From positions 4,698,084 through 4,762,083 of the forward strand of contig NC_087072.1 of the NCBI RefSeq assembly GCF_026151205.1: 64,000 nucleotides of DNA, read 5' to 3'. This document shows, piece by piece, positions 1 to 60,000 of this stretch. The position numbers and the translations under genes are program-made. Under the pieces are notes generated by a model that saw only the letters and a list, made by a program, of their open reading frames with translations, did no database searches and was not told where the DNA came from. Position 1 is the stretch's first letter. Each line of letters begins with the position of its first letter. Source of the DNA: Bolinopsis microptera. Its lineage: Eukaryota; Ctenophora; Tentaculata; Lobata; Bolinopsidae.

Positions 1-864
1 AAAGCATTAATACCTCACTGCTACAAACAAATAAAACACAGAAGGCACAAAATGTATTAGTTCATTCTAGACGAAATATTTGATTTCTTAAACATTCTAA
101 TCACTAGCAGGAACCCGTCTAACCCTAAAGTGGTGTCAAGACTCGAGAGACTTAAATAATTATTACCTATTTAATTCGCGTTTTTGAAACCACTTGGGAA
201 TCCAAATTTTGGGCACTAAAATTCTTATTCCTTGGCCGATTGTTTATTTTTTCATGCTGATTTTTAAAGCATTAAAGCATTTGACCCAGTCACAAAAGTT
301 TCCGTTGTGGGGGGGGGGGGGGGGGGGGGGTGTAACCCAAAAAAAACCCAAAAAACCCAATCCCAGTATGACCTTTTTCAGGGTAGGAGTTGGGTTTTTT
401 TGGGTTTTTTACAAATTTTTCATTTGAAGGAAATAAAATCATGTAGGCACCTAGCAAAACAATTATCAGTACAACATCACTGTTGTGGTTCATCACTACA
501 ACATCACAATAGATATAATCGCTTAAATATCACCCAAAAGCAGTATTTTATTCACTGATGTGCTCAGAAGAAGTTGGCCATCCAGATATGATATCAGTCA
601 TATGTAATGCTCACTTCGATGGCCATGGTAAATTGAGTTAGTAGGGACGCAACTCACTGATGACCCCAACCCTGACCGCAACCGGTATGAGAGGAATAAA
701 GCCTTTCTTCTCACCTTCACGATCTCTGTTTCCGTTTTCCTGATCATCCGCTTAACGAGAATCCATGCTCTATCTCCAACTGAAAGAATCTTGCAGTTAC
801 CATCAGCTGCATGATCACATGTGATATTAAGTGATATCTTCGCTTGTTTATGGCCCTGGAGTCG

Positions 865-1738
865 CTAAAATCTTGACTGGGATGGCATTTGATCTCGCCC
901 TCCATTGAGGCAAACCTCAACAGCCGTATCATGATGCAGAGCATCACCATACACAGTTACTATTTTCGCCCATTCCTCTGATGAGTCAATATCCTCCACT
1001 TCCTCTTCTTCATCATCTGTTTCCGCTTCGTCACTCTCTGCTCCGTCAGAAGATGGTTGGAAAGCCTCTCCTTCAAAGCTACAGTGTTCTTGAAGGAGTT
1101 CTCTACCCCTTGAGACTCCCTTCTTCATAGCTTGTAACAATCTTGGAATTGAAGTATCTTTACCTCTAAATAGTTTCTCTGCTTTCGGATGCGGTATAAC
1201 AAGCTTGTTGCGAGAGTGGGCAACTGTTACAGGAATCAAATTTTTGCCGAGTGCATCAAGCTCGAGGGAACGGTTTGATTTGCCCATGCCAACCAACATA
1301 TCCTTAGAACACAGATTAGTTCTAATGCCTGCATGGAGGCCTATGCGCAGGAAAGCATAAAGTTTGCTCGCAGGCATCAGATGTAAACAGCCAGGGCATA
1401 AAGTGTTGATAACTGTTGTCAGCTGTTACACTGAGAATGTACAGCATCAGACCCTCGACTGTAATAATCGCATCATCAAAATTTTTACAAGTAGGCAGGT
1501 GGTCTTTCAATGGTTGTGTGAAGCTTAGGTGGCCCAAGGCGTCACCGCTGGATAGAAGCTGGGTGGAAGCCCTGGTCTGATGTGAGGCTCCCAGAACTTT
1601 GAAAAGGGGTATCCTGCTGGTGCCCTCTTCCAGACACTCATCGGACAGCATGATGAAAGCCACTACCTCCGCGTGGTGAAGACTGGATACTGGACAGGCA
1701 GGACGGTCGACGGGAGACATTGAGCCCCGGAAGTTCAA
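865..1738 (-). pseudogene. Degraded ORF pair of unknown family
   Basis: Two overlapping minus-strand frames (1738-1322 and 1377-865) appear to be one protein interrupted by a frameshift near 1330-1380. The downstream part ends in a strongly acidic stretch (DDEEEEVEDIDSSEEW). It lies wholly inside the G-capped insertion, so it may be a remnant of a transposon-encoded protein, but I do not recognise a family and see no catalytic motif. Treat it as broken and unassigned. Confidence 0.35.
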
Positions 1739-2429
1739 TAATTTGATCTGTTGACTCCTTAACTCTTGGTCTACAAGAGGCTTTGAGACTCGTAAATCTT
1801 TACTGTGTATTGCACAGTAGCTAAAGAGGTGTTGGCTGTTACCCTGTTCAACCTAGTCTACTATGACCCAGCTAGACTGGACCACACTCTGGTAGTCAGG
1901 ATACGGCTCCCTATGCCCGGGGTACCGGGTAACGAGGTAGTCAGGGGAAGGGTTAGTCCCCGCTAAAGTGTAGCTCTGTTTTCAATCTAACCTCCTTATG
2001 CTTTGGGATAAAATCGGAAAGTCCCACACTGGAGCAGGTGACGATTGGGTAAGGATTACAACTGATGCTGTTGGGTAGAAAAAGGAAGTGTCACATTTGT
2101 CTTGTATGGCATATGTTCGTGCAATTACATGCTCAAGATACCCAAGATATTATGGTGAGAGTTAAAGATGGCTATTGTTCAAGCGGATGCCCTTAACCTT
2201 TTAGTGGCGCAAGAATTAAGAACACAATCAAATGCCAATGTGCAGGGGACTGCACAGGATTGTGAGCCAACTGAAAAGTCAAGATGAAGTTTATCAACAG
2301 CTTAAGGGTTAAAGCCCCTTATTTTTCTAGTAGGAAGTGGTTGCCGGGGTAATTACGCTGATATTACAGAAGCTGATGACTCGGTCTCCACAACACGACA
2401 AACTATTTCTACAGAAAGTCAAACAAGAA

Positions 2430-3417
2430 AACATCAAAAAAATATGAACATCAATTGTATTGTATCATGTAAAAGGACTGCTAAGGTTAGCACATTTAAC
2501 ATAAGAACAGCCAGAGAACAGCACAAACGCATCGAACTTGAAGAACTATTTTCTCGAAGCAAGCTGCACATCCTTGCCCTGCAAGAATCGAACATCGGGT
2601 AGTGCATGCTGATTGCTGAGAATACCAGAATAGAAAAGATGAACAAAAGGATTCATCCAGTGATCTCATCTGCGTGGAGAAATGCAGCTGGCGCTTCACC
2701 ATGTCTCTTAATGGAAAGCCCAGGCTCACTGTCATCACATGCTACAGTCCTACAGAAGCCTCATCTGATGAGGAGGCAGGAAATCTCTTTTGTCTAAAAC
2801 CAAGCATCTTACAGTTAATTTAGTAGGAGAGGAGCCACACACAATAATTTTTAAGGACGGACATGCCTTAGAAGAAGTTGAGGATTTTAGTACAACGGAG
2901 CACGACTTTAGGTTACGCAAGGCCAAGGCATGGGCTGCCTACCACAAAATGTAGGCTATATGGAGGTCCAATTTGCGCCGAGATTTAAAGATCCGTCTGT
3001 TCAAGCTACGGTTGAATCAATCTTCCTGTATGGAACGAAAACGTGGACAATAACAGAATCTTTGAAGAAAAGAATAGACGGATGTTACAGTAGTCAGTAG
3101 AATGCTTCAGATGGCCCTAAACGTGGACTGGAGAGGACATCGCACCAACAAGGAGGTCTTTGGATCACTCCCAAGAGTTATTTCGAAGATACAGGCTAGA
3201 AGAATGAGGTTGGCTGGGCACATCCAGCGACATGATGACCTGGCAGCACACCAACTTCTCCTTTGGGAACCTAGGGAGGGGTAGACCACCGCTCACCTTC
3301 GTCGATAACCTAATAAGTGACACTGGACTCAAGAACACTGGGGAGATTAAGGAGCTTATGGCGGACAGAAAGCTTTGGAGACACATCATCGAGACTCGGA
3401 CTCTGAAGCCGCCTTAA
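2430..3417 (+). pseudogene. Non-LTR retrotransposon relic (endonuclease and RT tail)
   Basis: From about 2443 the translation resembles the start of an APE-type endonuclease (STFNIRTA, then LHILALQESNIG). From 2660 another frame continues with WRNAAGAS. From about 2950 to 3417 the frames match the C-terminal region of RTE-like LINE ORFs: FLYGTKTWT, then LQMALNVDWRGHRTNKEVFG, RRMRLAGHIQRHDD and GRGRPPLTFVDNL. Several frameshifts and the missing central reverse-transcriptase motifs show it is dead and internally deleted. The family assignment rests on pattern recognition only. Confidence 0.7.
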
Positions 3418-3634
3418 GTGAAGTAATTTAAGTCATGTGCTTTGACTTGCCCTTGACCTTCGTCATAGCCTCCTTCCATGACAGGAGAACACATTTGCCA
3501 CATTTGGCACATTTCCACTTTGTTCATTCATATGGATTATATCTCGATGAACGAGACATCCTGTTTGCTATCGTGATAACATACTATCAATATAAACACA
3601 CTTATATACTATGTAAACTATCTATTAAGTTAAG

Positions 3635-4881
3635 CTTAGTTGTAGTGATCGTACGGAACGTTCACTAAAAATAGTTTGTGAACGCGTTCGCTAAAAGATT
3701 TTAACGTTCGGAACATAAGGAACGTTAAACTTAATTGCTGTTATGAAATTAAAATGCCGGACATAGCCCAATTATCCGGCAAAGTACTAGCGTTTCCATT
3801 GCCAGGCCTTCAGGGCCTTGAGGTATGTTACAAATATTATTATGTTAGAGAGACTGAAGGGTTCCAAGGATACTTTGATTAAGACTTATATTGATCCAAC
3901 CCTTACTGAGTCTGTTAGCAAAAAGTAATGCATACAAGAATTTGTTTGAGTGCGCTAAAGATTTAGTGTTTGACCCCCATTTCTGGATAGAAGTCGACTA
4001 TTTATGCTCAATTCTCGAGCCGATAATAGTCTTGCTTAGATTTTCAGACAATAGTCTTAAGATTCCTGTTGGTTTCATCGGTGTAATTTATTACAAATAT
4101 TATCTGTTCACCTTGAAGTTAGCAAATTTTGCTTTCCGCAATAGAAACCATAAAAGTGATATGGTTAGTCTTGCCAACAAAAGGTGGCTCGAGCTCCATT
4201 CCCCCCTACATTCAGTAGGATTTTGTGTTCACCCGGCTTATCGGGGATATGATCAGCACACGAATCAGGATGTCTGGAAGGAGTTTCTAGATGTCATGGA
4301 CACGTGGTGTGACGGCGCAACAAAGAAGAAGATACTTTCGCAGTACACGTTCTACCGAGATAAAAGAGGCTTATTCTCTACTGACGCTGCCTCAAGTCTT
4401 AGCCAATATTCTGACGATGCAGTCTCTTGGTGGAGCAACTTCGGTTGCGAGGTACCCGAACTACAGAGTTTTGCAATGAAAGCGCTGTCGCAATCGACAT
4501 CAGCCTCACCCTGTGAGACGAATTGGAGCTTGTACGACTGGGTGATAAACAAAAAAAGAAACCGCCTCACAGTTGACAAGCAGCGAGACCTTATTTATGT
4601 TAACGCAAGTTTGCGTCTTATGAACAATTCACGAATTAAGGAGCAATAATTTCATTACTATTTGCTATACTAGTGACTTATTTTTATTCATTATTGTTGT
4701 TTATTTACTGTCTAATTCCGACAACATGGTTTTATCTCATTGTATCCATCTCAAGTTAAAAACTATCGGAAAAATTATCAAAATATCAAGACTAACGTTC
4801 ACTAACGTTCACAAACGTTCACTACAAAATGATTGGAACGTACGTTCAGTACGACTAAGTTCAGCGTTCACTACAACTAAG
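3635..4881 (+). mobile_element. hAT transposon, 1247 bp, with 8-bp TSD
   Basis: Inverted ends CTTAGTTGTAGTGA (3635-3648 and 4868-4881) are flanked by a perfect 8-bp duplication AAGTTAAG (3627-3634 and 4882-4889), the length typical of hAT elements. Both subterminal regions are crowded with AACGTTCAC-type motifs in both orientations (3655-3720 and 4795-4870), probably transposase-binding sites. The interior holds only the C-terminal part of a transposase. Whether the short length reflects internal deletion is inferred from the normal hAT size of several kb. Confidence 0.88.
3879..4649 (+). pseudogene. hAT transposase C-terminal fragment
   Basis: This open frame of about 255 codons has no ATG at its start and is closed upstream by TGA at 3876. 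It ends with the hAT dimerisation signature: DDAVSWWSNFG, then PELQSFAMKALSQSTSASPC, NWSLYDWVINKKRNRLT and DLIYVNASLRLM. The N-terminal BED finger and most of the catalytic region are absent, so the element cannot supply its own full transposase. It lies between the matched TIRs of the 1247-bp element. Confidence 0.82.
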
Positions 4882-5712
4882 AAGTTAAGACATGAGAACA
4901 ACACGTAGGTAAGACTCAGTGGGAAATAATTCTCATTCAATACAATTAATGAAATGGCTAGAATTTTGTTTAAATTTTGTTTAAAAAACCCAAAAAAACT
5001 CAAAAAAACCCAATCCCAGTATTACCTTTTCTTGGGTAAGAGTTGGGTTTTTTTGGGTTACACCCCCCCCCCCCCCCCGTTGTATATCTTTTACGGTTTT
5101 TGCGGAAAGTCGCGTTAAAGTTGATGCCGTGGTGGCAGTAAAATAGCACGGATCCATAATCCATAAACATGATATATATATCCATATACATGATATATAT
5201 ATAGAGAATTTACCGTCTTCGCAAAATTAAAAACCATATTCTGTGAATCTGTGTAAAACATCTCAGTTCACCATTTCCTAACAGCACTTTACCTGGGGAC
5301 CCCAGGCTATTATGTTAGAATATAGATTCTGAGCGCCGCCCAGTAAAACTGTGTGTCCCTTTGTCCAGGCGGGCCTAATCGTTCTTCATTATTGCACTCG
5401 GCAAATGTCAGCCTCTTCCACGAGAAATCGTAATATGTAATAGCTCGCGGGGTATAGGAGGGACGCTTACTGGAGGATCTCTGGAAGAGGCGATCAAAAT
5501 TGTCGACAGCCCAGTCCTGATCACATAATGGGCCGAATGTAGTGAATAGAATAATGCAGCTATATAGGAAACGATTAAAACTCACAAAGAATCTCTTGTG
5601 CGCTCCTTTACTTGCGCTATTTCCTAACAGTGACTAAATGACTATTTTGTTACTTATAGGGTTAGACGGGTTCTTGCTAGTAGATATAAACCCTGTGCGT
5701 TATACAGTATAC

Positions 5713-5990
5713 TTACCAGCAGAAACCCGTACAACCTTAAAGTGGTGTCAAGACTCAAAAGGCTAAAATAATTATTACTTATTTAATTCGCGTTTTTGAC
5801 ACCACTTGGGGGTCAAAATTTTGGGCACTAAAGTTCTTATTCCTGGGCGAATTTTTTATTTTTTCATGCTGATTTGAAGGCCATTAAAGCATTTGACCCA
5901 GTCAAAAAAGTTTCAGTTGTATATCTTTTACGGTTTTTGCAGAAAGTCGCGTTAAAGTTGATGCCATGGTGTCAGTAAAATGGCACGGAT
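5713..5990 (+). repeat. Second copy of the TA-flanked repeat
   Basis: It is collinear with 112-302 and then with 5079-5148, and includes AAAGTGGTGTCAAGACTC, TTTAATTCGCGTTTTTGA and GGTTTTTGCAGAAAGTCGCG. It shows the sequence as it was before the 4.8-kb insertion in the neighbouring copy. The right part is lost at about 5990. Confidence 0.8.
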
Positions 5991-5994
5991 ATAA

Positions 5995-6050
5995 CAGGAA
6001 TTAAACAGGAATTAAACAGGAATTAAACAGGAATTAAACAGGAATTAAAC
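5995..6050 (+). repeat. Five tandem copies of CAGGAATTAAA
   Basis: A perfect 11-bp unit repeated five times, directly abutting the broken end of the preceding repeat. Confidence 0.9.
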
Positions 6051-9500: not shown

Positions 9501-12500
9501 GAGGAGCACTTTAAATAAATTGTATTGAAATACGACTTTATGATCCTCAAAAGGATTATTATTTCTCACATATTATAATATTCCAGAGAAATTCCAAGAT
9601 GCATTATATATTGGTAGGCGTTTCACGATCAATCAGCATCCACTTTTGACCAATCAAGCCCCAGAATCACTGTAACGTGTCAAAAACATATGCCTCACCT
9701 TCCCACCATAATCACATCTATTGACTCGGCGTAAATAGTAAATTATCAAACTTGCAACGTTTAGTAAAGTTCTAACAGCCCCACTTCCGGTATTTGGTCT
9801 CAATTAAATATGTATACGTTCATTGAGGCAATTCTAATTATATCACTCTCAGTCCCTAGGGTACAATCATTTAGTGGGCGACAGATCGGAGCCTCACGAC
9901 TAACTTGCCCTGGCTTATCCGATGGGTTAGGCTTAACTTTAGTATTCGAATAATTCAACGAGTCAAAAATTATGGGTATCATGTGATCATCTCTCTGTCA
10001 CTAGCATTTGAACAGACTAAGGGGACTACGGTGACTAGAACTGTGATACGATCGTTGAGTGAGCGAGGGACCGGAGCCTCAAGGCAGAGGATTGGAGCCT
10101 TACAATCTCAGATCATATTATTCAGCATACAATTTTCATAATGACAAATGTCCTATCAAATGGTCTAGGGCAAAGATCAAACGTTAGTAGTATTTGAATA
10201 ATTCGACGATTAACAACGTGAATGGTGTCACGCGCCCATTATGACTCATTCTGACATTTAGGAATTCTATACTCAGTACTCACAGATACAAATTTGCTCC
10301 TCAACTTTTATCTAGATCAGATTATTCAGAAGGTAGATGGGCTCAGCTCTGGGGTGCCCTCTGTTGCTCCCTAACATTGTTGAATTATGACTTACATTAA
10401 TTGCTGTAAGCAGGAATGAACGCCACCCTGGACGCCTGCGCCTCCGAGTTGGTAATAATCTTCAGCAGCTTTCATACCGGCGTTTATCGTCAAGGGTTAG
10501 ATTTATTGAAGTGATCGCCATTTATCTGGTGCTCATCAGTCATCTGTCACAAAGTAGTCTTGATGACATGACGTGACAACATAAGAAATTACAATATTAT
10601 GTTCATCATCAACTTCATAGGATAAGGAAACGTTTCAGTGTCTCTTTAAAATTTCTTGGCATTAGCACCTAGCTAATAAACAAAAATTGAAACAAAGTTC
10701 TTATTTGATATTTGCTACAGAATTTGACAGTTTTATTCTTCTTTATAGCAATGTTAACCTTCCTATTGGTGTTCCAACTGTCTATACCTTCAGCATTTTC
10801 TGGTAAGTCAGAGGAGGTAATAGTTAGTTTTCCGTCCGAATTGTTTGTTTAATTTATTAGCTAAAAGCCCGTCCCATAATCTAGATTTACCATGCACATG
10901 GTGCCTCACTAGAGTCAGGAATTTATATCCGTCAATAAAATAATTTCCCAGTCGTGTACCAGATGACTGCCACAATAAGAGATTACAGTGAGTACGATGG
11001 AACTGTAGACGCGCAGTTTGTGAATATCGCAGGAACTCTCGGAGTAACAGAGGAGAAAAGGTGTTCCGCTGACTTTGATGTGTACGGTCAGGACGTCGTG
11101 TGCTCGATTGAGAGCGATGTTAAGATCGGGGACTACAAATGTGTATCTTGGAGAACTAGTGGTAATGATGGTTGGTCTCTTATGAAGGTTTGTGGTGATA
11201 TCTTAATCTTTTTCCTGTTATTCTATTGGATTTGGGTGGAATCTAAATGTAAACTGTAGAGTTAGCGACATATTAACCGCAGCGTGCTGTCGAAATTTAA
11301 CAGGGGGGGGGGGGGGGGGGGGGGGTGGGTGACATGTTCGCCTATGTCCTGTCCTCTTTTGATTCTATGAGACAATGGAAGTGTTTTTTGGGACATTAGC
11401 GGACATTGACGGACAAACATTATGAGAATATTTCGCACATGATTTTGACACAATATTTTCGGCTCATAATGATCAGGGTAGCATGAAACATGAACAAAAG
11501 TAGTTTCCAGAAAAACTTTTCCGAGCTTCCGAGCTCGTATTGCGAAGGGGAGGCCTGGCTTCCCAGATCACATCACAAAGGGGGAACCCTCGAGTCCAAA
11601 ATCGTATATCGAAGGGTTTAGTGTAGGTGCGGACTTCGAAAATTCGAAGTATGGCCCCCCCCCCCACCTATGTCCTGTCCTGTCCTGTCTCTTCTGGATT
11701 CTATGAGACAAGCGGGCATATAGACGGACGTGTCACCCTCCCTTTATTATTCAAGAGAACTTTCTAAGCTTCCTTTTCATTTATTTATAGATTACGTTGG
11801 ACGTTATAAATTATTATGTTGCACGTTATCAGTATGTATATAATTTAATATCTTAACTCGAACCTGAAATGAAGCAAGTTATTCTAAATATAGAATTTTC
11901 AGTTAAAGGTGAAAATAGAAAACCAGGAGATACACGTGGTGGTACCGCAAAATGGCCAGTTGAACGGCTTTATTAACATGAGGAACAAAGAAACAAGCTT
12001 ATTTTGCCTTGAAAGTAGGTTTCAAACCACTATCATTGAACTTATTTTGTAAATATACCTATTTATCAAAACCTGTACCTGCATTAGCATTTTAGAGGCT
12101 ACTTTACAGCTTTTCCAGTTTAGAATTTCATGAGTAACTATTGTTAAGAGCCTGACCTTATCATTTTCACAATCTAGGAGGGACATAAGTCTTTAAAGTT
12201 AAAAACGAAGAAAGAAAGCTTTAAGAATCAATAAATGTAACTTAAAACTTACTTCAATGATTTCACGCAGATACTGGTGTATGGACCACGCATCCTGATA
12301 AGTATCTATTTTCAACCTGCGGGAGCGAAGATATAGATGGATACAAAACTCTGGAGATCGCCAAGGCTGAGTTTTTTAAACAAACCGGTTAGTTAGTATT
12401 AACATGCAAGTATTTATTTTACACTGAAACTTATCCTAAAACCACTCAACAGCTCTGCAGCAGCCGGAAGTCCTGAAAACAATTCTACACTAACCCCAAT

Positions 12501-15500: not shown

Positions 15501-18500
15501 TCCGATATAACGTGGACATTCAGTGAGTTTATATGTCATTTAAGACCTTTAACCATGATGCCAGTCAGCTAAGGCCTTGGAATTAAGCTAAGGGCTGTCA
15601 GTTTGAGTTGAAAAGTGATCATGTACTCGGACGTAACCGATAGCTCAATCTTTCTACGCAGGGAAATTTTAAAAACTTGGCCCGTCGGCCTTCATTTTAC
15701 AACATACTTACCAGCAATATCTATCAGGTTGTCCCGCTGGAGAAGGAAAGTCATCTGATGGAAAATGTGAAAGTTGCAGTGGGAATACTTACAGCGATCA
15801 GGGTACTGGATCATGTCAAGAGTGTACCGGCTGTACCGGTAAGTCCAAAACGAGACCGAGATAAGCAGGGGGGCAGGGGGCCGGGGGGGGGGGGGGGGGG
15901 TAGGGATGACATGTCCAACAATGTCCGCCTTTGTCCTGTCCTTGGTCTTGTCCCGAGTCAAAAAAATTACAAAGTTATCCTGGAAACAACTTTTGTTTAC
16001 TTTTCAGGTTACCCTGATCATAATGAGCCATAAATATTTTTTCTCATTGACTAATCATTCAATACCAATCCTGTAAATTATTCCTTAATCTGACAGTTTC
16101 ATGCGAGAGTCTTCCCTCAAACTGGAATGAAATGATGACAGAGACAGAGTTCCCTCTTCCGCCTGGGGATGAAGTGTCCCTGAAGTGTAGTCCCGGACAC
16201 ACTCTGACTGGAGACAGCACTGTCACATGTATAGAAGGAACAGATTTCTCATCCACTAACGCTCCCTCTTGTATAAAAGGTTTGAAGACATTGGCATGGT
16301 GCAATTATTGGTTTTTCTTCTATTCTTAAAATTTGAGATCATAATGAGCCATGAATATTTTTTCGAAGCCGACCATTTGATTCACGATTTTCGAATGTAG
16401 TTATTTCTATAAAAAATGCCACCATCTAATAGGTCTAGATCTTGTATCCAAGTACAATAGTCCTCGGCAGTATCCAGATAGCCTGACCCCTGTTCGTGAA
16501 CAGTTGTTCGTGAACAACTTATGACATGATGGTTACCAGATCATATGACTGCATAATAACAGTACACAGAAGTGACAGACCGCGTTTTCTGTCAGTCCCG
16601 TCAACTGTGATATCGTAATGCCAGCTAGTCCTTTTATACTCAAACATAACAGCAGTTGTAAAAAGGTCTTGAGAGTGAGCTTCTTTCCAGAGAGGACAAT
16701 AAGAAGTCTCGTGCATTCTCTAGGGAGCTGGAGGCCGTGGGTCCATTAATTTCGTTCAGTAGACAGAAGAGTACCATGTCAGGAATTGGAATAGTTGTTG
16801 TTGTTGTTGATGATGGCAACTGATAATGGCAAATTATGCTAGTCGTAACTAATTGCATTCAAGATACCATACATACCATTCAATTTCATAACATTTCATG
16901 ATTGATATGCGGTCATATGATCTGGTAACCAATCAACTGTTCGCGAACATTTTGCTGTCCACTTTTATCCGCTAATGTCCGCCTATGTCCGCCTATGTCC
17001 TGTCATGTCCTGTCCTTTTTGGATTCTATGAAACAAGCGGACATAGACGGACGTGTCACCCCCCCCCCCCCCCCTTTTTATACACTGATACAGCCATCAT
17101 CGTATCAATCTAATGAATGCTTCTACTGTTTCAGATTGTCCTCCTGCAACATACAAAGATGAAGAAACTACAGAATGCAAAGAATGTCCTCCAGGAACTT
17201 TCAATGGAGAGGCGGGGCTGAAAACTGAATGTTCTGCCTGTGAGCCTGGGGAATTCAGCCCTGAGGGTGCCACCTCTTGTACATTATCTTGTGTGATAGG
17301 AAATGAATTGAACACCGAAAAGAATGAATGTGGTGAGTAATCAAATACAGTAATTGAATGTTTTGGATTTTCTCAGTAATTTTTGCTGGTCTGCGTAAGA
17401 TAATATATAAAAACAATTAAATGTAACAAAAAAAAAGTGAAATAATAACGTAGTTCGTTATCTAAGATGTTTTCTATTAAAAATTAGTTCGACAATAGGG
17501 GGCTACGATGGTGCATGTCAATATTATCATCTTGAAACCTCTTCAGAGCCCTGTCCAGCAGGAAGCTATAAAGACAGTTCCATGACTGAGTGTAAACTAT
17601 GTCCTGACAACACTTACAGTGCAGCGAGTGTTGGGCTGTGTACACCATGTCCTCAAGGATCTCACGCTAGTAAAGATAATGCACGTTGTGGTAAATGTCT
17701 AGTCTTACTAACTAGTCTTACAGCTTACTATCAGCTAGTCTTACCGCTGAGTAGGGATGTAATTTGCTGATAACTTTCATTTTTTCGACCGCTTTATCGT
17801 AAATGACAAGTATAAACCAACTTACATCAAAGCTGAGGAGTGAGGGACTAATCATTCAATACCAATCCTGTTAATCATTCCTTAATCTGACAGTTTCATG
17901 CGAGAGTCTTCCCTCAAACTGGAATGAAATGATGACAGAGACAGACTTCCCTCTTCCGCCTGGGGATGAAGTGTCCCTGAAGTGTAGTCCCGGACACACT
18001 CTGACTGGAGACAGCACTGTCACATGTGTAGAAGGAACAGATTTCTCATCCACTAACGCTCCCTCTTGTATAAAAGGTTTGAAAACATTGGCATGGTGCA
18101 ATTATTGGTTTTTATTCTATTTTAAAAATTTGAGAGAAAGCATCAATTATTGCATATTATTGGTTTGATTATCCTTCCACAAAAATTAAGCAATTGTCTA
18201 ATGATCATGTTTGAACATTGTTCTTAAAATCCTCTTGCAGACGTATGCAGCCAACTGCCGAATATACAGAACCTACAAACGCTCACAGAGTTTCCAGTGT
18301 CCTATGATACCCCGGTGACAGTGCACTGTGACGCTGGGTACTCTTTAGAAGGTAGTGACGTCATCACTTGTATCAGAAATGATAACTACCGGTCTGTCCA
18401 TGGTCAACTTCCTTCGTGCGAAGAAAGTGAGTCAAATTTAATCTGGCAAAGAAAAATATTTTATCTTTGGATTTACATTCATCTGTTGTCGAACTGTAAT

Positions 18501-24411: not shown

Positions 24412-24457
24412 TTACCTGTTAAACATCTACTGTACACATTCTTAATAGAAGAGGATA

Positions 24458-33740: not shown

Positions 33741-34242
33741 GGGGGGGGGGGGGGGGGGGGGCAACCATATTAAAGTATATTAAAGTATATCCCCGGGTCA
33801 AAATCGGGAAAAATCCTACATTTTAATATACTTTAATATGGTTGGCCCCCGGCCCCCCCCCCCCCCCAGATATAACTCAGTGTTTGTTGAATACAGTGGA
33901 TACTAAGTAAAAAGACCTCCATGAACAAAATTGGGAAAATTGCACATAATATCTCGGTTCGGAATACTAGCCAAAATGACTTCATTAAAATTGAAATAAC
34001 TCCATCAGTTTTCAATATTTTTTCAAGAACTTTTTGGAATCGATTTAGAATTGCATTTCAAGCTTATTTTGAGCAACAATTTTTGATGTAGGCCTCCAAG
34101 GAGATAGGGATATATTAAAGTATATTGTAGGTATATTAAAGTATATTAAAGTATATCCCCGGGCCCGGGTCAAAATCGGGAAAAATCCTACATTTTAATA
34201 TACTTTAATATGGTTGCCCCCCCCCCCCCCCCCCCCCCCCCC
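33741..34242. mobile_element. AT-rich G-capped family: mini copy plus right part
   Basis: A run of 21 G (33741-33761) followed by CAACCATATTAAAGTATATT, the core CCCCGGGTCAAAATCGGGAA, its inverse end AATATGGTTG, and a C-rich run to 33867. Directly after it comes AGATATAACTCAGTG and the rest of the family to TTTAATATGGTTG plus 26 C (34217-34242). It is either a complete small copy abutting the right half of the element cut at 31171, or a rearranged single copy. No clear target duplication. Confidence 0.65.
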
Positions 34243-36094: not shown

Positions 36095-39000
36095 GTATGT
36101 TAGAAATGAGGTTATTATAATTTTTCATAATGTAAATTTTAGCTTAATATTTCGATTATCGGGGGGGGGGGGGGGGGGGGGGGGGGGGACAAAAGAGACA
36201 AGAGGGACAAAAGGGACAAAAAAAGATAATAGGGATAAAAAAGACAAAAAAGACGGGGCAAAAAGGACAAAATGGACAAAAAGACAGGGACAAAATGGAC
36301 AAAATGGACAAAATGGACAAAAAGGACAGGAACAAACGAAACAAATAGACAGGGACAAAATGGACAGCAAAGGGGGGGGGGGGGGGGGGGGGGGGGGGTG
36401 TCACGTCCGTCTATGTCCGCTTGTCTCATAGAATCCAAAAAGGACAGGACATAGGCGGACATAGGCGGACATAGACGGACATAGGCGGACATAGACGGAC
36501 ATAGGCGGACATAGGCGGACATTAATGGACACCTAAATTACTAAATAAAATGTTAAATTTTTGCTGTTATAGGGGGGATCATGTTTTTTGTCCGTTCGGT
36601 ACCCTATATTTTCAAAACGGACAAAAAATAGAGCGGACAAAAATGGACAAAAAACGGACAAAAATGGAAATAACATTTAGATGCTTCCTCCTCCTACTCT
36701 TCCTCCTCCTCCCCCTGGGTCTTCCTGATCTTCCTCAGTCCTCTTCCTCCTCCCCTCCTCAGTCCTCCTCCTACTCCTCCCTCGTCCTCAGTCCTCCTCA
36801 TCAGTCCTCAACAGTCCTTCTCCTCCTGGGTCCTCCTCCTCCTCCTGAGTCCTCCTCCTGGGTCCTCCTCCTGGGTCCTCCTCCTCCTCTTCATCCTCCT
36901 CCTCTTCCTCCTCAGTCCTCAGTCCTCCTCAGTCCTCCTCCTCAGTCCTCCCCCAGTCCCCCTCCTCCTCCTCCTATTCAGTCCTCCTCCTCCTCCTCCT
37001 TCTCAGTCCTCCTCAGTCCTCAGTCCTCCTCCTCCTCCTGAGTCCTCCTCCTCCTCCTCCTCCTCTTCCCTCTCAGTCATCCTCCTCAGCCATCCTCCTC
37101 AGTCCTCCTCAGTCCTCCTCCTCAGTCCTCCTCCTCCTGGGTCCTCCTCCTCTTCATCCTCCTCCTCTTCCTCCTCGGTCCTCAGTCCTCCTCCTCCTGG
37201 GTCCCCCTCCTCATCCTTCTCATCAGTCCTCCTCCTCCCCAGTCCTCTCCCAGTCCCCCTCCTTCTCCTCCTATTCAGTCCTCCTCCTCCTCCTCCTCCT
37301 CAGTTCTCCTCAGTCCTCCTTCTCATTTCTCCTAAGTCCTCCTCCTGAGTCCTCCTCCTGAGTCCTCCTCCTCTTCCTTATGAGTCCTCCTCCTGAGTCC
37401 TCCTCCTCCTCCCTCTCAGTCATCCTCCTCAGTCATCCTCCTCAGCCATCCTCCCCAGCCATCCTCCTCAGCCATCCTCCTCAGTACTCCTCAGTCCTCC
37501 TCCTTCTCAGTCATCGTCAGTCCTCCTCCTCAGTCCTCCTCCTCCTCCTCCTGGGTCTTCCTGATCCTCCCCAGTCCTCTTCCTCCTCCCCTCCCCAGTC
37601 CTCCTCCTACTCCTCCTCCTCGTCCTCAGTCCTCCTCATCAGTCCTCAACAGTTCTCCTCCTCCCCAGTCCTCCTCCTCCTGGGGCCTTTTCCTGGGTCC
37701 TCCTCTTGGGTCCTCCTCCTCCTGGGTCCTCCTCCTCCTGGGTCCTCCTTCTCCTCCTCAGTCCTTCTCCTCCCCCTCCTCAGTCCTCTTCCTCCTCTTC
37801 CTCCTCTTCCTCCCTCTCAGTCATCCTCCTCAGCCATCCTCCTACCCTCCTCCTCAGTCCTCCTCATTCTCAGTCCCCTCACTCAGTCCTCCTCCGTCCT
37901 CCTCCTCTTCCTCAGTCATCCTCCTCAGCTTCCTCCTCCAGTCCTCCTCAGTCCTCCTCTGGGTCTCTCCTCTGGGTCTCCGACTCCTTCATCCTCCTCC
38001 TCATTCCTCCTCTCAGTCCTCCTCTCTGGTCATCCTCACTCTCAGTCATCCTCCTCAGCCATTCCTTCCCAGCCTCCTCCTCGTACTCTATCAGTCTCCT
38101 CGTACTACTTCTCCTCAAAATGTTTGTCCTCTTATATTTCCACCAATGTCCCGCTAATGATCCACCATGTCCATCCAAGTCCGCCTTTGAGTCCCTCCGA
38201 GTCCGCCATGCCTCCGAGTCCGCCATATGTCCTCGTACCGTCTCGCCAATTCCCAAAAAACCGTCCCGTTGTCTCATAGAATCCAAAAAGGACAGGACCT
38301 AGGCGGATCATACGTCGTCCTCCCCCCCCCATCCTCCTCCTCCTGCCTCCTGGGTCTTCCTGATCCTCCCCAGTCCTCTTCCTCCTCCCCTCCCCAGTCC
38401 TCCTCCTACTCCTCCTCCTCGTCCTCAGTCCTCCTCATCAGTCCTCAACAGTTCTCCTCCTCCCCAGTCCTCCTCCTCCTGGGGCCTTTTCCTGGGTCCT
38501 CCTCTTGGGTCCTCCTCCTCCTGGGTCCTCCTCCTCCTGGGTCCTCCTTCTCCTCCTCAGTCCTTCTCCTCCCCCTCCTCAGTCCTCTTCCTCCTCTTCC
38601 TCCTCTTCCTCCCTCTCAGTCATCCTCCTCAGCCATCCTCCTCAGCCATCCTCCTCAGTCCTCCTCCTTCTCAGTCCTCCTCAGTCCTCCTCCTGAGTCC
38701 TCCTCCTCCTCAGTCATCCACCTCAGTTCTCCTCCTCCTCCTCCTAGGTCCTCCTTCTGGGTCCTCCTCCTCCTGGGTCTTCCTGATCCTTCTCCTCCCT
38801 CTCAGTCATCCTCCTCAGTCATCCTCCTCAGTCATCCTCCTCAGTCATCCTCCTCAGCCATCCTTCTCAGCCATCCTCCTCAGTACTCTTCAGTACTCTT
38901 CTGTACTCTTCAGTCCTCAAAATGTTTGTCCACTAATGTCCACCAATGTCCGCTAATGTCCACCAATGTCCATCCAAGTCCGCCAATGTCCGTCCGAGTC

Positions 39001-42000
39001 CGCCAATGTCCGTCCGAGTCCGCCAATGTCCATCCGTGTCCGCCAATGTCCCAAAAAACACGTCCGTTGTCTCATAGAATCCAAAAAGGACAGGACATAG
39101 GCGGACATAGACGGACATGACACCCCCCCCCCCCCCCAGTAAAGAAAATAAGGTCAATTATCCGTTGAAATGCAAAAAATAAGTTTAGGCACAGTTCCAG
39201 CAAGCTAATAAGTTGGGTAAATTCAGACAGAACAGTAAAGTCAATCTTGGTTATATATCAGCCTTAGTGTACTCACTGTTCAAGACAACTTGGTCTAGTC
39301 CGATATGCCTGCTCACTGATTCACATTTGACGTTTGAGCTGAACTTGCATTGCAAACAACACTCAAAAAGCAAGAGGGTACAGTGTTATGATATTAAAAG
39401 ATTATGACTTTTTTGATATCACCACTTGATTAATGGGATTAATGAAATATTGACTGAACCGTGTACACATTTATTTATGTGATGCCGTTGATGAATTCTG
39501 CTTATTTAAGTCCCTTCAGTGGTTTCAGTTGAGTCTAAGTACAGCAAAACACTGACGTGAAAATCTAAATTGTTGATGTCGAGTAGAATATATATATACA
39601 TTCTCTTCATTTGAGCTTGTCTAATTTTTTGTCTCATTTGTCCAAAATTTTTGTCCCTTTTGTCCCTTTTGTCCCTAGTATTGTCCATTTTGTCCCCAAA
39701 ACACTGTCCTTCACAAAAAAATGTAAAAAAAAGACAAAGACAAAATGGACAAAATGGACAGTGATACCCCCCCCCCCCCCCCATTATCCGATTGCACACT
39801 CATTCTTCTAGCTCTAAAACACGTTGTCGGAAAACAGCAGTCTATAAAGTGTTGTCCAATTAATGGTCAAGTCACTTCTAATTAAGCGATTCTTAAGTAT
39901 CAGAGCTTTCTTTTAGAAAAGTTTGTAATGACAAATGAAGGAGACTCACAACTTGTATATCCTAGAATTTATATATAGAAGAATATAGGAGTGGGATTTA
40001 TAGTCGGCTGTATGACATATGAACTGTTTATAAGATATGCGGCATCACTTGAAGTATGGCTTATGGCAATTTGGAAAATTGTCTTCTCTGAATGATTGTC
40101 ACGAGAGATGTTCTACAGTTTAGAGATTATTATTTGCTCACATAAGATCTACACAAGCTGAAGACAACTGTTTATAATATCTAATACAGCAAGGATCCCG
40201 TTTGAACAATATTATTTCAGCAATAAAACAGCACAATTTTAGTATCACAATTTACAATACAGCTCTTATACGTTATTGATCTAACATCATATAATGCTTT
40301 TCAAACAAGATTCAGAATTTTTAAAGTTTACCAGAGAATGAATATTATGTAATCTTAAGAGAGATCAGAATAAAAATCAGCGTTGATCCCCATTCCCCAA
40401 CCCTCTGTGTGTACTGAAAACATAATCTCTCATTTAAAAGCAATGCTATCAATACCAAATGATTCTAAAGATAATTTAGCAATCTCTGTCTGCGCATTCT
40501 TCTCTTATTCTAACTTTCACAGTTTCACAAAGCTGAATTGTTTGCGATTTTCTCTTAGTTGTCCTCTATCTTGATGTTAAAGATTTAGCGCCTGATCGTG
40601 ACTTGAATGAACACGATTCAACTGTGTTCTTATCTTTCTCTTTTTTGCACAAAGATAACGCTATGAATTTACCCCACAACTCTTTAATGTGTGCTTTCAT
40701 GTCCTTTTTCCTGTAGAAGTATACTACAGGGTTACATGCAGAGTTCAATGGAAGTAGGATGTGGTTTGAAACTTCTATTACTTCATCAGGAATTGCAAAA
40801 TAGCTTGTTAGAGAGTAACAGGGCATAATGAACTGAATAACAAATCCGATGTTACAAAGACAGTAGATAACTGATATTATCCCGACTGTCACTGTAGCTT
40901 TCTTTTTCCATGTCTCTGTCTTCAACTGCGACAGATACAACTTTCCTATGTTTAAAACATTTGCTAATACAATTATTACAAACAAGCTAGCTATTATCAA
41001 AAATTCTATATGAAAAACAACTCTAAAAACAATCAATAAGGCTGGAGTAGGTGCTCCTGCTTCATTAAAAATATCGTATAGAAAATATGGATAACCTGGT
41101 TCGCCAGTTAGCATTCGGATATAAAATGCTTGTAAAGCTGAAATGATCACACCATAAACTGTAATGGACACATAAACTGCACTCCAATTAATCACCTTTA
41201 GAGGAAGAAACATGTGTATCGCCCTTACAACTGCCAATAAACATGTCAGAAATCCAGTGGCGTAGACTGATATTCGACGAATAGCGGCAAAGGTATCAAA
41301 TAAGAATGGAACATAAAAGAACTCAAAAAGTAGCCGCAATGCAGACGAAACACTGACCAAAAGATCGAATATGTTCAAGGCAAGAAAGAGTTTAGTGTGA
41401 GCTTCAGTGTTTCTTGTTTGGTTGGTTGATTTTAACTTGGCGACGAAATAAGATAGGGATATGATGTTGGTTATTGTCCCGAAAATGGCTATCAATATAG
41501 CAACGTATTGTATAACTTGCTTTGATGTGTCGGCACTTGTTGATGTTGTCCAATATGAAGTTGATGATAACATATTTAACTGTTGATGGCGAGATGAACG
41601 AAGTTCTTCTAGTGCGCTAGATTCTTCCATGACCTGGCAAGAGTTGAATTATTGTTGTTGTCTTATATATTATCTAAATAGTACGTATTTAATCCTGATC
41701 ATAATTCATATTAATACAGCTATTTATTTACTAGGCACGGCAAACAGCATGAGCTATAAGATATTAGAATAAAATCTCCAGTTGCCATAATAACTTGCAT
41801 TCTCTCAGTAACAAACCTAGATGAGTAGATGCTTGACGCTAAGAAATTTGTAAAACTACCGGGTCAAATCGTCCAATGTTTTATTCGATTGTATCTATCA
41901 AACATAGAGATTACTCGGCTGAAATTTTACGTATTCAACCAATTAACGACCGCCGACTAGGCACCAAGAATCCTTGTTCTATAATATAGAATGATTAAAC

Positions 42001-48000: not shown

Positions 48001-51000
48001 TATATTACTGTGGTAGGCTGCACGTGGTACCAATAACACTGAACATATAAATAACTAGTCGGAGGAACCCATGCTTACAGCCAGAGCTAATGCTGTGAGT
48101 GCCCTTCGTGGCCTACACTTGTGGCTCAAAATACTAAAGACCCTAAAGTTTAAAGAAGTAGTGACCGGAAATATTTCCATAAAGTATTTGATGAACCATG
48201 ACTACAGTTGTAGAGCTGCAGTTATAGTGAACACGTAATAGAGGGTGTGAGGTGGTATGTAGGGTATGTATGACATAATGGTTGTGGTTGTAGTGGTCAT
48301 GCTAGATATTACAGCTGCACTCTGGCTTCACAACTACAGAAGTTATGTATGAAATGTGGGGTTCTCGCGAACCTATTTTATTGCCGTAAAATCTATTACC
48401 TGTTGCATAGACTCTCCAAATCGTTTATATAAATTTGATTTACAAATAATTCAAAGGCTCTTGAATTTGTCGACTTAGGACCTGCAGTATAATAGTATAA
48501 TTTTCTTGAACTTCTTGTATTTTTACTCCCAAAAGATATACCCTTTAATTAGAGTATTAAAGGCTACTGACAGAGCACGTTGCTTGATAACAATGTGTAA
48601 GAATTTTAAATTTTACCACAAATCATTGAAATTCCTGTTTTAGAACTGAATTTAGATATAATTGTCATATTATGATGTACATATCATTATGATTCATAGC
48701 TCAAAATTCTAACGTACATATTATGATTTTGAAAGAGTTCTACTGAAAATCGTGTTGCAACTTGCAGTTTGGTAGCATTTAGTGTTCGTCCACCAATAAG
48801 AATACACTGGCTGCCCTCTTTAAGATTATATTCTCCATCTCTGAAGTGCACAGATCTGCTTCGTTCTCAATCTTCTTCTTATTTCCTTCGACAAATAATG
48901 AAGATTCTGCTTTTGAAGTATATGAACCTGTTGCTGTGTTTTCTTTTTTGTTCCTGCATAAACACGATGTTATGAACTTGTTCCACAAGGTTCTAACATA
49001 AGATCTCATGTCCGCGTTTCTGATGAAATAAACAACAGGATTACAAGCAGAATTCAGCGGAAGGAGGATGTGGTTTACAATGTTTATAAGTTCATAAGGA
49101 ATGGACTGGTAACTTGCTACAGAGTACGCATCGTACGTGACCGTACCGACTACGATTACAAACCCAACATTGCAGACACAGTAGATTACTGATATTATTG
49201 CAACTGTTATTGTAGCTTTTCTTTTCCAGTTTGTTGTCCGCGGTGAGTGTGAAAGATTTAGCCTTCCAATGTTGATCATATTCGCTAATACAACTATTAT
49301 GAATAAACTTAATAGGATACAAAACTCAATATGGAAAATAACTGTAAAAAGTTTAACAAAAGCTGAATTCGGCCTAACACTCAAACTTTCTATATATTTT
49401 TGAAAAAACGATTCCCCAGAACTTAACAGTTGGTTAAGATAAAAAGATTGTAATATTAAGATGATAACCCCGAAAACAGCAATAGAAAGTTTAATTGCCC
49501 TCAAATTAATGACATGCCCAGGATATATTAAATGTATCGCCCTCAAAACTGCCAACAAACAGGTTAGAAACCCTGTCATTAACACCGATATCTTACAAAA
49601 CAGAGCCAAGGATTCTTGTACATAATAATCAGATCCCAGCAATTTGAGCCACATAAGTACGGACAAGGAGGCGCTTACTAACAGATCGAATATGTTCAGT
49701 ACTAGGAAAAGTAGGGTATGTCCTTCAGTATTTCTTGTCAGATGGACGGATCTGATTTTGCTAACAAAATAAGATAAGGACAGTATGTTTGTGAATATCC
49801 CCACTATCACTATCAGTATGCTGAATCCAGATATCACTTGCGCTGCTGTCTTGCCACTTGTTACCCAGGGCCAGGAACTCGACGAGTAGGGAACTGATGT
49901 TGTGGACATGTGCTGCAGTTTCTGGAACTGTTCCATTTCCTGTAAAGAGTTCAACATTGAGTTCAAAATTGAGTTCAAAATTGAGTTCAAAATTGAGTTC
50001 AAAATTGAGTTCAAAATTGAGTTTAAAGAGTTCAAATTGGGGTGGTCACACAATGTGATGGCCCTGTTAAAGCTTAACGAATCTCAATATAGGTCACATA
50101 GGTCACAAATTAGTTTTAAAACTTCAGTTCAACTGCATCGTCAAATACTTAGATCACATTTTAAACGTTCTGAGGTTAATCGATAATCGCCTAGGTTTCA
50201 ATCTTCATGAAGATTGATGACTATTGACTGATCATAACTACTGCAACTGATATAATGGCACATCACAATGCAAAATTGAAACGATTCAAATATACTATAA
50301 AACTGGCGAGGTGGCCGGAGTAGTGCTCATTTGTTTTGACGTATATTCAGACGTATTTGACAAAGCTCTCGTCAGCTACCAATCAAATTCTAATATCGCT
50401 AAGCAACGTACAATGGAAAATATATTATACATATGTTATATTAAACATGATGCAATCTAAATTATAAAATGCTGACGTATCGCATAATGCTTGATTTGAT
50501 GAGTAATGCTAAAAACTATCAAATGAGGAACCCGTTGACGAAATCTGGATAATAAGTCAAAAAGTTGCGCAAATAGTACTTCGAAATAATGAAATAACAG
50601 AGTGTATAGATTGATTAATTTCCAGCATAAAATTTTGGTCAGGATCAAAACGAGATTTTTTAATGAGTTAAAAAGATCACGATAGGACTGTAGATCATGA
50701 TAGAGCTATAGATTTCGTTTTCTAAATTGATAAACTGCACTTCAACAGTACACGCCAATGAACACAGCTCGATTACCGACAGGAATTTTAAATGCTCAAG
50801 CTGAAATCGTATAATTACTAAATATAAATGCATACATGTTTCATACGAGCAGAAAAGATATGTAAGCAAGCTGGAATTGATTTTATATATCCATTCCATT
50901 AATTTCGGTAGGGTCAAAGAGATTTTGAGCATAGTTTGAGTCATACGATGAAAATATAACTCTGGATAAGTCGCTAACAATAAATAAATAACGATAACCA

Positions 51001-57000: not shown

Positions 57001-60000
57001 TTTGACAAGAAACTGCCAGTTATTAAACCTATTTCTAAAGGAAGGACGCCGCCCCGCCGAGGATCTACCGGTTTCTCGATACTCAAGGGAACTGGCAAAA
57101 CTAAGACTGCCGGCATTCTTTTTGAAGCTGATGAATCACCAGATAAGCTTACAGTTGTTGCTGAGATGCCTGTCACACCTGTTAAAGCCAATAACGACGA
57201 CTCTGACACTGTTCCTGTCATGAACTTAAACGAGAATGTTCGCGAGGAACGGAAGATTGAAACTGTTGAGGAGGATAAAGAAGATATTCCCTCTAGCGAA
57301 CCTCAGGAACCAGAAGTGGAACAAACTGAGTTGAGTGAAGAAGAGTGTGATTTGGAGAAAACGCAAAAAATTCCTTCAAACGATTACAGAAACTCTTCAG
57401 AACCTACCAACCTCAACAAATCAATGTCTGAGGAACCAGACACAACTCCTCGACTCTCACAAGGCAGCAGTGCCGCGTCCTCTGATAATATCGTAATCTA
57501 TGACTCTGAATCTGGGGAACCAGACACAAATTCTCGACTCTCACAAGGCAGCAGTGCCGCGTCTTCTGATAATATCGTAATCTATGACTCTGAATCTGGG
57601 GAACCAGACACAAATCCTCGACTCTCACAAGGCAGCAGTGCCGCGTCTTCTGATAATATCGTAATCTATGACTCTGAATCTGGGGAACCAGACACAAATC
57701 CTCGACTCTCACAAGGCAGCAGTGCCGCGTCTTCTGAAGATAATATCACAATCTATGACACTGAATCTGAGGCATCAAACACTAATAAAACTGATAAGGC
57801 AGATTCCGCGATCAAGCCTGAGCTAAACAATACTATTAATGATTTCTTAGCCAATAAAACCACTGATTCAGCCCCGATTGAAGACAATTTAGATGAAACT
57901 CAGAAATCAGAGATCATTCAACTTGAAACAAGCAACAGAGTGAGTGAGCCGGTGAAAACACCAGATGTTTCCATGCTGGACACATCCTCTCAGTCCGAGA
58001 TTATCAATCTCAACAAGTCTGCTTCTGATGGGGACGAAAACAAGGAAACCAAAGCTCGGTTACTCTCTGAAGGTAGCAGCTTAGTTTCAACGGAGTCGGA
58101 TGACAACATTGTGATTTATGATAGCACTCCAGAAAGTTCTCAACAACAATCTGATAAAACTGATTTAGTTGAGTCTGTAGTGACGGAGCCAGGGCTTAAC
58201 ACCACAATCGATGATTTCTTGAAAGATAACAAGACACCAGCCACAACTCCGGACACAACTCCGGCTCAGGAGAAAGCACCTGCTACTCGTAAGTCCACTA
58301 GGAAGAGTGTAAGGTTTGGACCGATGTTGTCACCACAAGAGTATGATAAGGACATGCCTGCTAACACTCCCATCAGACGAGGAGGTATGCCCGGGAGGTT
58401 CTCAGTTCCCAACCCTCAGCTGAGTGCAGGACGCACGCCACTTCGTAAAAGTGTTGCTGTGTGCAGTGGCACTCCAGTAGGCCAGCTCAAGCTGGACGAC
58501 AGTTTGGAGTCTTTGGGTGCGGACTCTCTGGGCTCACTTGATTCTGCTAATCAGGACAGTGAAACCAAGGCTAAGAAGGAGAGGAGGAAAACTATGACTC
58601 CAAAAGAGGTTAAAGCAAACATCGCATGGGCGGACCTTAGTCTGAACTCGGAGCAAACGAAAGCCCATGTCGACTCGCCTATTGTTACTCAGACTCCTAA
58701 ATCAATGCCTAAAGCTACCATTCCATTCGTTTTGGTAAGCAGAAATTTATTAGTGAGTAGGCTGTAGAATTCAGATGCGTGTAAATCATGGGGGGGGCCA
58801 ACCATATTAAAGTATATTAAAGTATATCCCCGGGTCAAAATCGGAAAAAATCCTACATTTTAATATACTTGAATATACCTACAATTAGAAGATTTATATT
58901 CTTCGTTAAGATTTACATGATGAAATATATTTTTCACTCAGATTCGCAAGATAAGCCTGTTTTAGGACTAGTACATGAATTTCCATCCAGATTGGTCAAA
59001 AATTGGCTGAGCTATGAGCTTTAAAAAATATGCCCATATTTGGGCATACGCTTTAGCCCAAATTCGCTTTTGCCCAAATTCGATAAAATTTCAATATTTT
59101 TTAATGAGACTAACTCTATGTGAAAGATATAACTCAGTGTTTGTTGAATATAGTGGATACTAAGTAAAAAGACCTCCATGAACAAAATTGGGAAAATTGC
59201 ACATAATATCTCGGTTCGGAATACTAGCCAAAATGACTTCATTAAAATTGAAATAACTCCATCAGTTTTCAATATTTTTTCAAGAACTTTTTGGAATCGA
59301 TTAAGAATTGCATTTCAAGCTTATTTTGGGTAACAATTTTCGATGTAGGCCTCCAAGGATAGGGATATATTAAAGTATATTGTAGGTATATTAAAGTATA
59401 TTAAAGTATATCCCCGGGTCAAAATCGGGAAAAATCCTACATTTTAATATACTTTAATATGGTTGGCCCCCCCCCCCCCCCCCAATCATGATATGTATTT
59501 GTTTTTTCAACTATTATTTATATTATCGTTCATTTTTATCTCCATGATGAAAGACATTTACATTATTTATTTTATTTCGATAACTTTTTCATGAATTTAT
59601 AATCTATTCAGGAAGAAGAAGAGTCAGTTGAATCCCCAATGCCAACGAAGCCCCGGTCCACGCCGAAAGAGACTGCATCAGGAAGCAAGGTCTTCGGTAA
59701 GCTGTCCACTTCAGCAAAAACTCCTGTATCCGCTAAAGTTCGGAACCCCGCCAAATGTAGAGCGTCTCCTCCAACTCCTGTTCCGTTCTTGTAAGTAACA
59801 GCTCTTTATTATTAGCGTAATATTCTTACGCAAACAACAAAATAATTTGATTATTGTGCGAAATCAAATATTATATTGCTGCTTAATTTCTCCTTACTGA
59901 GCTTGCAAATGAGAAAGTCAGAGAAAGGCCGATTTAGCACGAGCATGATATTTTATATTTGAACGTTTTTTGATGTCTTATATAATCACGATTGATTATC

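What the first reader, a model, noticed from the sequence alone, without database searches (positions are those of the whole stretch)
309..59483. A class of homopolymer-G-capped mobile elements with 6-bp target duplications
Three sequence-unrelated families share one architecture: an outermost G run (C run at the other end), a TIR of about 20 bp, then a hairpin-forming subterminal module whose asymmetric core has the same orientation at both ends. Family 1: 309-5077 (TSD CGTTGT). Family 2 (GGACA type): 36372-39137, 11303-11743 and solo ends at 15868 and 16975. Family 3 (AT-rich): 58790-59483 (TSD AATCAT), 33741-34242. A composite at 36161-39782 has ATTATC on both sides. The 6-bp duplication is consistent wherever ends look intact. 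I know of no described superfamily with G runs as its termini, although 6-bp duplications themselves are known from other groups such as Polintons. An autonomous partner is not in the window.
Basis: partly seen in the sequence, partly recalled or inferred. Interest (0 to 1): 0.9.

Follow-up and report, generated by a model that had tools for sequence, protein, structure and literature searches.

The report
Guanine-capped jumping DNA elements
Several unrelated families of apparently non-coding jumping DNA in what looks like an animal genome begin with a run of G and end with a run of C; two of them most often carry exactly eight G at an end and insert between two copies of a six-letter target, a kind of end we did not find described.

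Summary
The window lies in a 264.65-Mb genome, probably an animal's. Families 1-3 are genome-wide repeats (50, 305 and 448 capped ends). Of 61 end pairs, 46 carry a 6-bp duplication if a flanking G or C may merge into the cap (mismatched flanks: 22 of 3420) and 4 an exact 7-bp one; 11 have neither. A paralogous empty site in the window puts the G/C runs inside the insert. Added here: caps of families 1 and 2 spike at exactly eight G (196 of 726 family-2 ends; 47 family-1 ends). Of 20 short-capped pairs, 17 have exact 6-bp and 2 exact 7-bp duplications. Longer caps look like later expansion (inferred). The ends are short terminal direct repeats with their own inverted arms, as in KolobokP but far shorter. 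No transposase was found; samples of hAT, MULE and Merlin genes showed no terminal caps.

The parts
309..5078 (.). Family-1 element; caps G22 (309-330) and C16 (5063-5078); interior with LINE-like pieces (by eye, no Pfam match) and a nested uncapped hAT insertion
303..308 (+). Left target duplication CGTTGT of family-1 element (right copy 5078-5083, its C shared with the C run)
334..406 (+). Left terminal module of family-1 element (hairpin arms plus asymmetric core)
   Evidence: 89% identical, same orientation, to 4987-5059
4987..5059 (+). Right terminal module of family-1 element, same orientation as the left one
5766..5990 (+). Paralogous empty site of the family-1 insertion
   Evidence: joined flanks align without a gap at the junction
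36161..39782 (.). Outer capped element (G28/C16), ATTATC at 36155-36160 and 39783-39788
36372..39137 (.). Family-2 element nested in the preceding one; caps G27/C15; flanks AGCAAA/AGTAAA
58790..59483 (.). Family-3 element; caps G8/C17; AATCAT at 58784-58789 and 59484-59489
33741..34242 (.). Rearranged family-3 copy with an inner C15 run (33853-33867); no target duplication
11303..11742 (.). Family-2-like copy, G23 at left, decayed right cap CCCTCCC; no target duplication found
   Evidence: paired G23 with the inner C11 at 11655
15883..17074 (.). Family-2-like ends (G18 and C16); no target duplication seen by eye

Best explanation
These are non-autonomous DNA transposons moved in trans by an unidentified transposase that makes 6-bp (rarely 7-bp) staggered insertions. 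In families 1 and 2 a fresh insertion ends in exactly eight G at the left and eight C at the right, followed inward by an inverted arm and an asymmetric core. The arm-core-arm module is repeated in the same orientation at the other end, so each element is an interior between two short terminal direct repeats that have their own inverted arms. After insertion the eight-G cap is unstable and often grows to 12-58. Shown: genome-wide families, duplications, caps inside the insert, cap spike at eight, module orientation. Inferred: that eight is the length at insertion, trans mobilisation, DDE-type chemistry, later expansion, and that the enzyme cuts a fixed distance outside its binding site, so that any donor cap length gives eight.
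For: Duplications: 46 of 61 pairs against 22 of 3420 mismatched pairings; in 20 short-capped pairs 17 exact 6-bp and 2 exact 7-bp, against 1 and 0 of 380. Empty sites: family 1 in the window; the 8-bp element in L064. Cap spike: family-2 ends with >=4, >=8, >=9 G are 726, 642, 446, so 196 have exactly eight; family 1 has 47 ends with exactly eight against 50 with >=12. Post-insertion change: two locus pairs that look like duplicated copies of one insertion (98.1% identical) differ in cap length, C18/C29 (G22 in both), and G15/G23 with C16/C21. Left and right cap lengths are uncorrelated (Spearman -0.08, n=61). Module orientation: the same in families 1, 2, 3 and three further capped elements. 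An uncapped hAT insertion inside the window's family-1 copy, with its own 8-bp duplication and empty sites in other family-1 copies, shows that not every transposon here has a cap.
Against: No own transposase was recognised in the capped copies examined, but only frames of 110 aa or more were looked at and not all were profile-scanned. Family 3 has only 7 ends with exactly eight G before CCAACC, so a fixed eight is not shown to be general. Cap length does not rise with divergence from the family in 15 family-1 copies, so expansion with time is not shown; that set was selected for one long cap. 11 of 61 pairs have neither a 6-bp nor a 7-bp duplication (two of them have an exact 5-bp match). The ten short-capped family-1 pairs were selected for eight G at both ends, so they test the duplication, not the cap length. 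Homopolymer lengths in an assembly can be wrong; one fetched stretch (L077) looks homopolymer-distorted.
Confidence: 0.68

Rival explanations
1. G caps are added without template (terminal transfer or tailing) to the 3' ends of the mobile DNA at each insertion, so their length is set anew each time.
For: Wide range of cap lengths (7-58), left and right lengths uncorrelated; caps on elements with 6-, 7-, 8-bp and TTAA duplications; no relation of cap length to divergence in 15 family-1 copies.
Against: A sharp spike at exactly eight in families 1 and 2 is not expected of open-ended tailing; caps differ between apparent duplicates of one insertion.
Confidence: 0.12
2. Ordinary slippage of any short terminal G tract in a genome prone to G-run growth; the caps are not a property of the elements but of the host, and unrelated superfamilies that start with a few G all acquire them.
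For: 12,681 runs of at least 16 G genome-wide, some in a minisatellite-like array (L069) and other places not recognised as element ends; caps on elements with several duplication types.
Against: The uncapped hAT, MULE and Merlin copies sampled are neutral, since they need not start with G.
Confidence: 0.17
3. Assembly or sequencing artefact at element ends.
For: L077 looks homopolymer-distorted.
Against: Caps sit exactly between target copies in dozens of copies, with eight-G copies on both sides; A/T runs are not affected in the window.
Confidence: 0.03

Closest known systems
KolobokP (Kojima and Bao 2022, PMC9587614; part of the abstract and passages seen)
   Same: Interior flanked by two terminal direct repeats, each with its own short inverted repeats (composite-like); termini RR..YY, which GG..CC satisfies
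   Different: KolobokP repeats are about 450 or 660 bp, Kolobok duplications are 4-bp TTAA, and it codes for a transposase and a His-Me nuclease; here modules of about 58-73 bp (families 1-3), 6-bp non-TTAA duplications, no such genes recognised
IS3EU / GingerRoot (PMC10045372; passages seen)
   Same: 6-bp target duplications; TG..CA ends in some GingerRoot, and families 1-2 read TGT..ACA just inside the cap
   Different: Complete IS3EU end in TA..TA; here the outermost bases are G runs
Dada (PMC3706591; passages seen)
   Same: 6-7 bp duplications
   Different: Dada (with definable ends) has no terminal inverted repeats and sits in small-RNA genes; here arms are present and target sequences vary
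Polinton/Maverick (duplication length from PMC10045372; ends recalled)
   Same: 6-bp duplications
   Different: Long inverted repeats and AG..CT ends (recalled); here short arms and G caps
CMITE of corals (PMC2872659; abstract and outline seen)
   Same: Internal part better conserved than the ends, as seems so in the two TTAA capped elements in L056 and L068 (by eye)
   Different: Linked to piggyBac; no G caps mentioned in the abstract
Homopolymeric guanine tracts of C. elegans (PMC9071541; passages seen)
   Same: Long scattered G runs (such as G23) in an animal genome
   Different: Not linked to transposon ends in the passages seen

Membership tests
IS3EU / GingerRoot | TA..TA (or TG..CA) outermost bases | tested here: not met
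   Outermost bases are a G run, eight or so in short-capped copies of families 1 and 2
IS3EU / GingerRoot | 6-bp duplication | tested here: met
IS3EU / GingerRoot | related transposase encoded | tested here: inconclusive
   None recognised in capped copies fetched; the rve match in L012 belongs to a nested LTR element; genome not searched for this enzyme
Kolobok / KolobokP (families 1-3) | TTAA duplication | tested here: not met
   varied 6-bp sequences
Kolobok / KolobokP (families 1-3) | terminal direct repeats with own inverted repeats | tested here: met
   (much shorter modules)
Kolobok (capped elements in L056, L068) | TTAA duplication and RR..YY ends | tested here: met
   two elements only
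Kolobok (capped elements in L056, L068) | Kolobok transposase | not tested
   coding part not searched
Dada | no terminal inverted repeats | tested here: not met
   inverted arms present
Dada | insertion in small-RNA genes | tested here: not met
   target sequences varied among copies; no Rfam match in the window
hAT | 8-bp duplication | tested here: not met
   6-bp in families 1-3; the L064 element does have 8 bp
hAT | autonomous relatives with the same capped ends | tested here: inconclusive
   20 of 150 matches sampled about 0.8 kb downstream: no run of 7 or more in 18; L090 and L091 have C runs of 7-23 in a sequence that recurs in L071, L074 and L101, judged by eye not to be terminal caps, duplications not tested. 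The nested hAT insertion in the window is uncapped
MuDR/MULE | autonomous relatives with the same capped ends | tested here: inconclusive
   2 loci for 88 matches: L100 no run above 5; L101 has G10 and G7 in the same recurring sequence as L090/L091, not a recognisable cap pair
Merlin (IS1595) | autonomous relatives with the same capped ends | tested here: inconclusive
   10 of 58 matches sampled about 0.9 kb downstream, no run above 6
Polinton/Maverick | AG..CT ends and long inverted repeats (recalled) | tested here: not met
   G-run ends and short arms
Polinton/Maverick | polymerase and capsid genes | not tested
   not searched
P element | P-type transposase with the same ends | not tested
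   searches for PF21787 and PF21789 did not complete

The most novel reading that the evidence does not exclude
[quoted passage not shown] in this genome it, or a shared host repair step acting on G-tract ends, has marked several unrelated families, so that a good part of the 12,681 long G runs would be old transposon ends.
Probability: 0.3. Interest if true: 0.82.

Novelty: new variant of a known kind. Interest (0 to 1): 0.62.

Why it matters
It offers a concrete source for long G/C runs in an animal genome: transposon ends that (as inferred) insert with eight G and later change in length. Such runs are linked to deletions in C. elegans when a helicase is missing (PMC9071541, passages). It also defines, with sharp ends and target copies, a group of elements whose enzyme is unknown and can be searched for by its G8 ends and 6-bp duplication, and it gives another case, beside KolobokP, of DNA transposons built from terminal direct repeats.

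Tried and rejected
The 8.8-kb family-1 copy (L012) was hoped to be the autonomous form; its 1080-aa frame has reverse transcriptase, RNase H, protease and integrase matches and lies between direct repeats, a nested LTR retroelement. Family-1 frames look in part like LINE pieces by eye, but none of the 8 family-1 frames scanned has a Pfam match apart from the nested hAT fragment, and one 186-aa frame has no convincing PDB match. A family-3 copy, L059, holds an RNase H frame of a retroelement. hAT, MULE and Merlin genes were sampled for caps; no terminal cap was recognised, though L090, L091 and L101 have G/C runs in another recurring sequence. P-type families could not be searched because the machine was busy. 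A shared core motif between the modules of six elements was sought and not convincingly found (a few low scores, two pairs at 0.015 or below among 30 comparisons). Cap length against divergence: no relation in 15 family-1 copies; the other four of the 19 family-1 pairs dropped out because no aligned stretch of 800 bases was found. Rfam: no match in the window. Literature searches for G-run transposon ends and related terms listed nothing that I recognised as describing them; they cover open-licence PMC papers only, listings were read by title and abstract start, and Repbase or Dfam could not be consulted.

Rows dropped before counts: of 60 fetched family-1 to -3 stretches, 5 (L023, L024, L056, L058, L064) had no matching partner end inside and were left out of the 61 pairs (55 plus 6 from the window). 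In the null the left flanks of L042, L043, L062 and L063 were left out.
Full report
Setting. The window is G000:C1:4698084-4762083 of a 264,652,675-base genome in 232 contigs. Frames with a PP1_bind match and weak, below-cut-off 7tm and F5/8 type C matches fit an animal; no tool named the species.

The observation. G/C run lengths in the window fall from 622 (length 3) to 1 (lengths 8 and 9), then 15 runs of 11-28 follow, while the longest A/T run is 10. 12 of the 15 are ends of claimed elements, two lie inside claimed elements and one (43414) is unassigned. The family-1 element 309-5078 interrupts a local repeat: its left flank joined to its right flank, one copy of the duplication removed, aligns without a gap at the junction to 5766-5990. 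So the G and C runs belong to the insert.

Genome-wide families. Family 1 (G12+TGTAACCC) has 50 ends. Family 2 (G12+TGTCAYGTCCG) has 305. Family 3 (G9+CAACCATATTAAAGTATATTAAAG, up to 2 mismatches, so eight G also pass) has 448. Controls with the pattern reversed gave 0 in each; the control gave 1 against 47.

Target duplications. From 60 fetched stretches 55 held both ends; with 6 window pairs this gives 61. A G after the left copy or a C before the right copy cannot be told from the cap, so I allowed up to two of each. These pairs were chosen for at least one long cap. Twenty pairs with short caps were then fetched by their ends only: ten family-2 pairs with both caps under twelve and ten family-1 pairs with eight G at both ends. 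17 have an exact 6-bp and 2 an exact 7-bp duplication, against 1 and 0 of 380 mismatched pairings. The one left (L114/L115) has a decayed cap, C5TCC, followed by AATAGT, which also ends its left flank (by eye).

The cap. Family-2 ends with at least 4, 8 and 9 G number 726, 642 and 446. So 196 have exactly eight, 84 have four to seven, and about 141 have nine to eleven, taking the 305 (a slightly looser pattern) as those with twelve or more. Family 1 has 47 ends with exactly eight beside 50 with at least twelve, and the partner ends of the seven family-1 copies selected at one end only measure 7, 7, 8, 8, 8, 8 and 9. I read eight as the length at insertion. Family 3 does not show this in the form tested: 7 ends with exactly eight before CCAACC. 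Longer caps range to 58. Two locus pairs that look like duplicated copies of one insertion (98.1% identical) differ in cap length: C18/C29 (G22 in both) in L042/L043, and G15/G23 with C16/C21 in L062/L063. Left and right caps are uncorrelated. Divergence does not predict cap length in 15 family-1 copies, so growth with age is inferred, not shown.

Architecture. Inside the caps each end carries an arm, an asymmetric core and an inner arm, and this module stands in the same orientation at both ends: 73 bp at 94.5% (L013), 58 bp at 96.6% (L039), 73 bp at 97.3% (L050), and likewise in three further capped elements, L064 (92 bp, 96.7%) and two in L072 (50 bp at 98%, 93 bp at 89%). The two TTAA elements, in contrast, match only as inverted repeats. 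The outermost bases form the inverted arms. Such an interior between direct repeats with their own inverted repeats is the plan of KolobokP (PMC9587614), there with repeats of about 450 or 660 bp in a TTAA superfamily.

Not one duplication class. The L064 element sits in a family-3 copy and duplicates AATTGCAT (8 bp); the uninterrupted site stands in 10 other places of the fetched material and window. Two elements in L072, one inside the other, have 7-bp matches that become 8 if one G is merged. A 68-base insert, G32-12 bases-C24, in L070 is flanked by AGTATAT. Capped elements in L056 and L068 are flanked by TTAA and have inverted repeats over at least the 180 bp compared. In a small sample of G16 runs from C1:33,000-589,000 many runs were not recognisable element ends, for example a minisatellite-like array in L069 and a homopolymer-distorted stretch in L077. 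So a G cap marks several kinds of element, and not every G run is a cap.

An uncapped neighbour. Inside the window's family-1 copy an insertion at 3635-4881, with a hAT dimerisation match, is flanked by AAGTTAAG (8 bp) and has no caps. It is absent from the 20 other family-1 stretches, whose sequence runs on across the site with one copy of the eight bases in most. So duplications of other length and uncapped ends are seen in the same genome by the same method.

The enzyme. None of the capped copies codes for a transposase of its own that I could recognise; I looked at frames of 110 aa or more and profile-scanned only some. The 1080-aa frame in L012 is a nested LTR element. Stretches downstream of 20 hAT matches (of 150), 10 Merlin matches (of 58), and two MULE loci (for 88 matches) show no terminal cap that I recognise, but L090, L091 (hAT) and L101 (MULE) do have runs of 7-23 in a recurring sequence whose ends were not worked out. 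P-type enzymes could not be searched.

Verdict. The elements are real, mobile in the past, and end in G tracts that belong to them. The best reading is non-autonomous DNA transposons with an eight-G terminus (families 1 and 2), a 6-bp duplication, paired terminal direct repeats and later change of cap length. They fit no superfamily tested here on its defining features; until the enzyme is found I rate them a new variant of a known kind.

Noticed in passing
L064:674-1986: G-capped element starting CCAATGG with an 8-bp duplication inside a family-3 copy; empty site present in 10 other places
   Followed up: yes
window 3635-4881: Uncapped hAT insertion inside the family-1 element, 8-bp duplication AAGTTAAG at 3627-3634 and 4882-4889, absent from 20 other family-1 stretches
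   Followed up: yes
L056:1128-2485 and L068:314-1686: Two TTAA-flanked G-capped elements with long inverted repeats whose subterminal parts look alike while the first ten or so bases after the cap differ (by eye)
   Followed up: partly
L070:105-172: Insert of 68 bases made of G32, 12 bases and C24, flanked by AGTATAT on both sides; possibly a remnant
   Followed up: no
L071, L074, L090, L091, L101: A recurring sequence rich in gattacgtaatcaac and short C/G runs (7-23), near hAT and MULE genes; its ends were not worked out
   Followed up: no
L012: LTR retroelement with a 1080-aa frame (reverse transcriptase, integrase) nested in a family-1 element
   Followed up: partly
L077 (G000:C1:585000-588900): Sequence that looks homopolymer-distorted, probably an assembly fault
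   Followed up: no
window 43414-43429: G16 run with no assigned element
   Followed up: no
window 40566-41648 and 48779-50083: Two frames that look related by eye; the first has a weak, below-cut-off 7tm_1 match, the second none
   Followed up: partly
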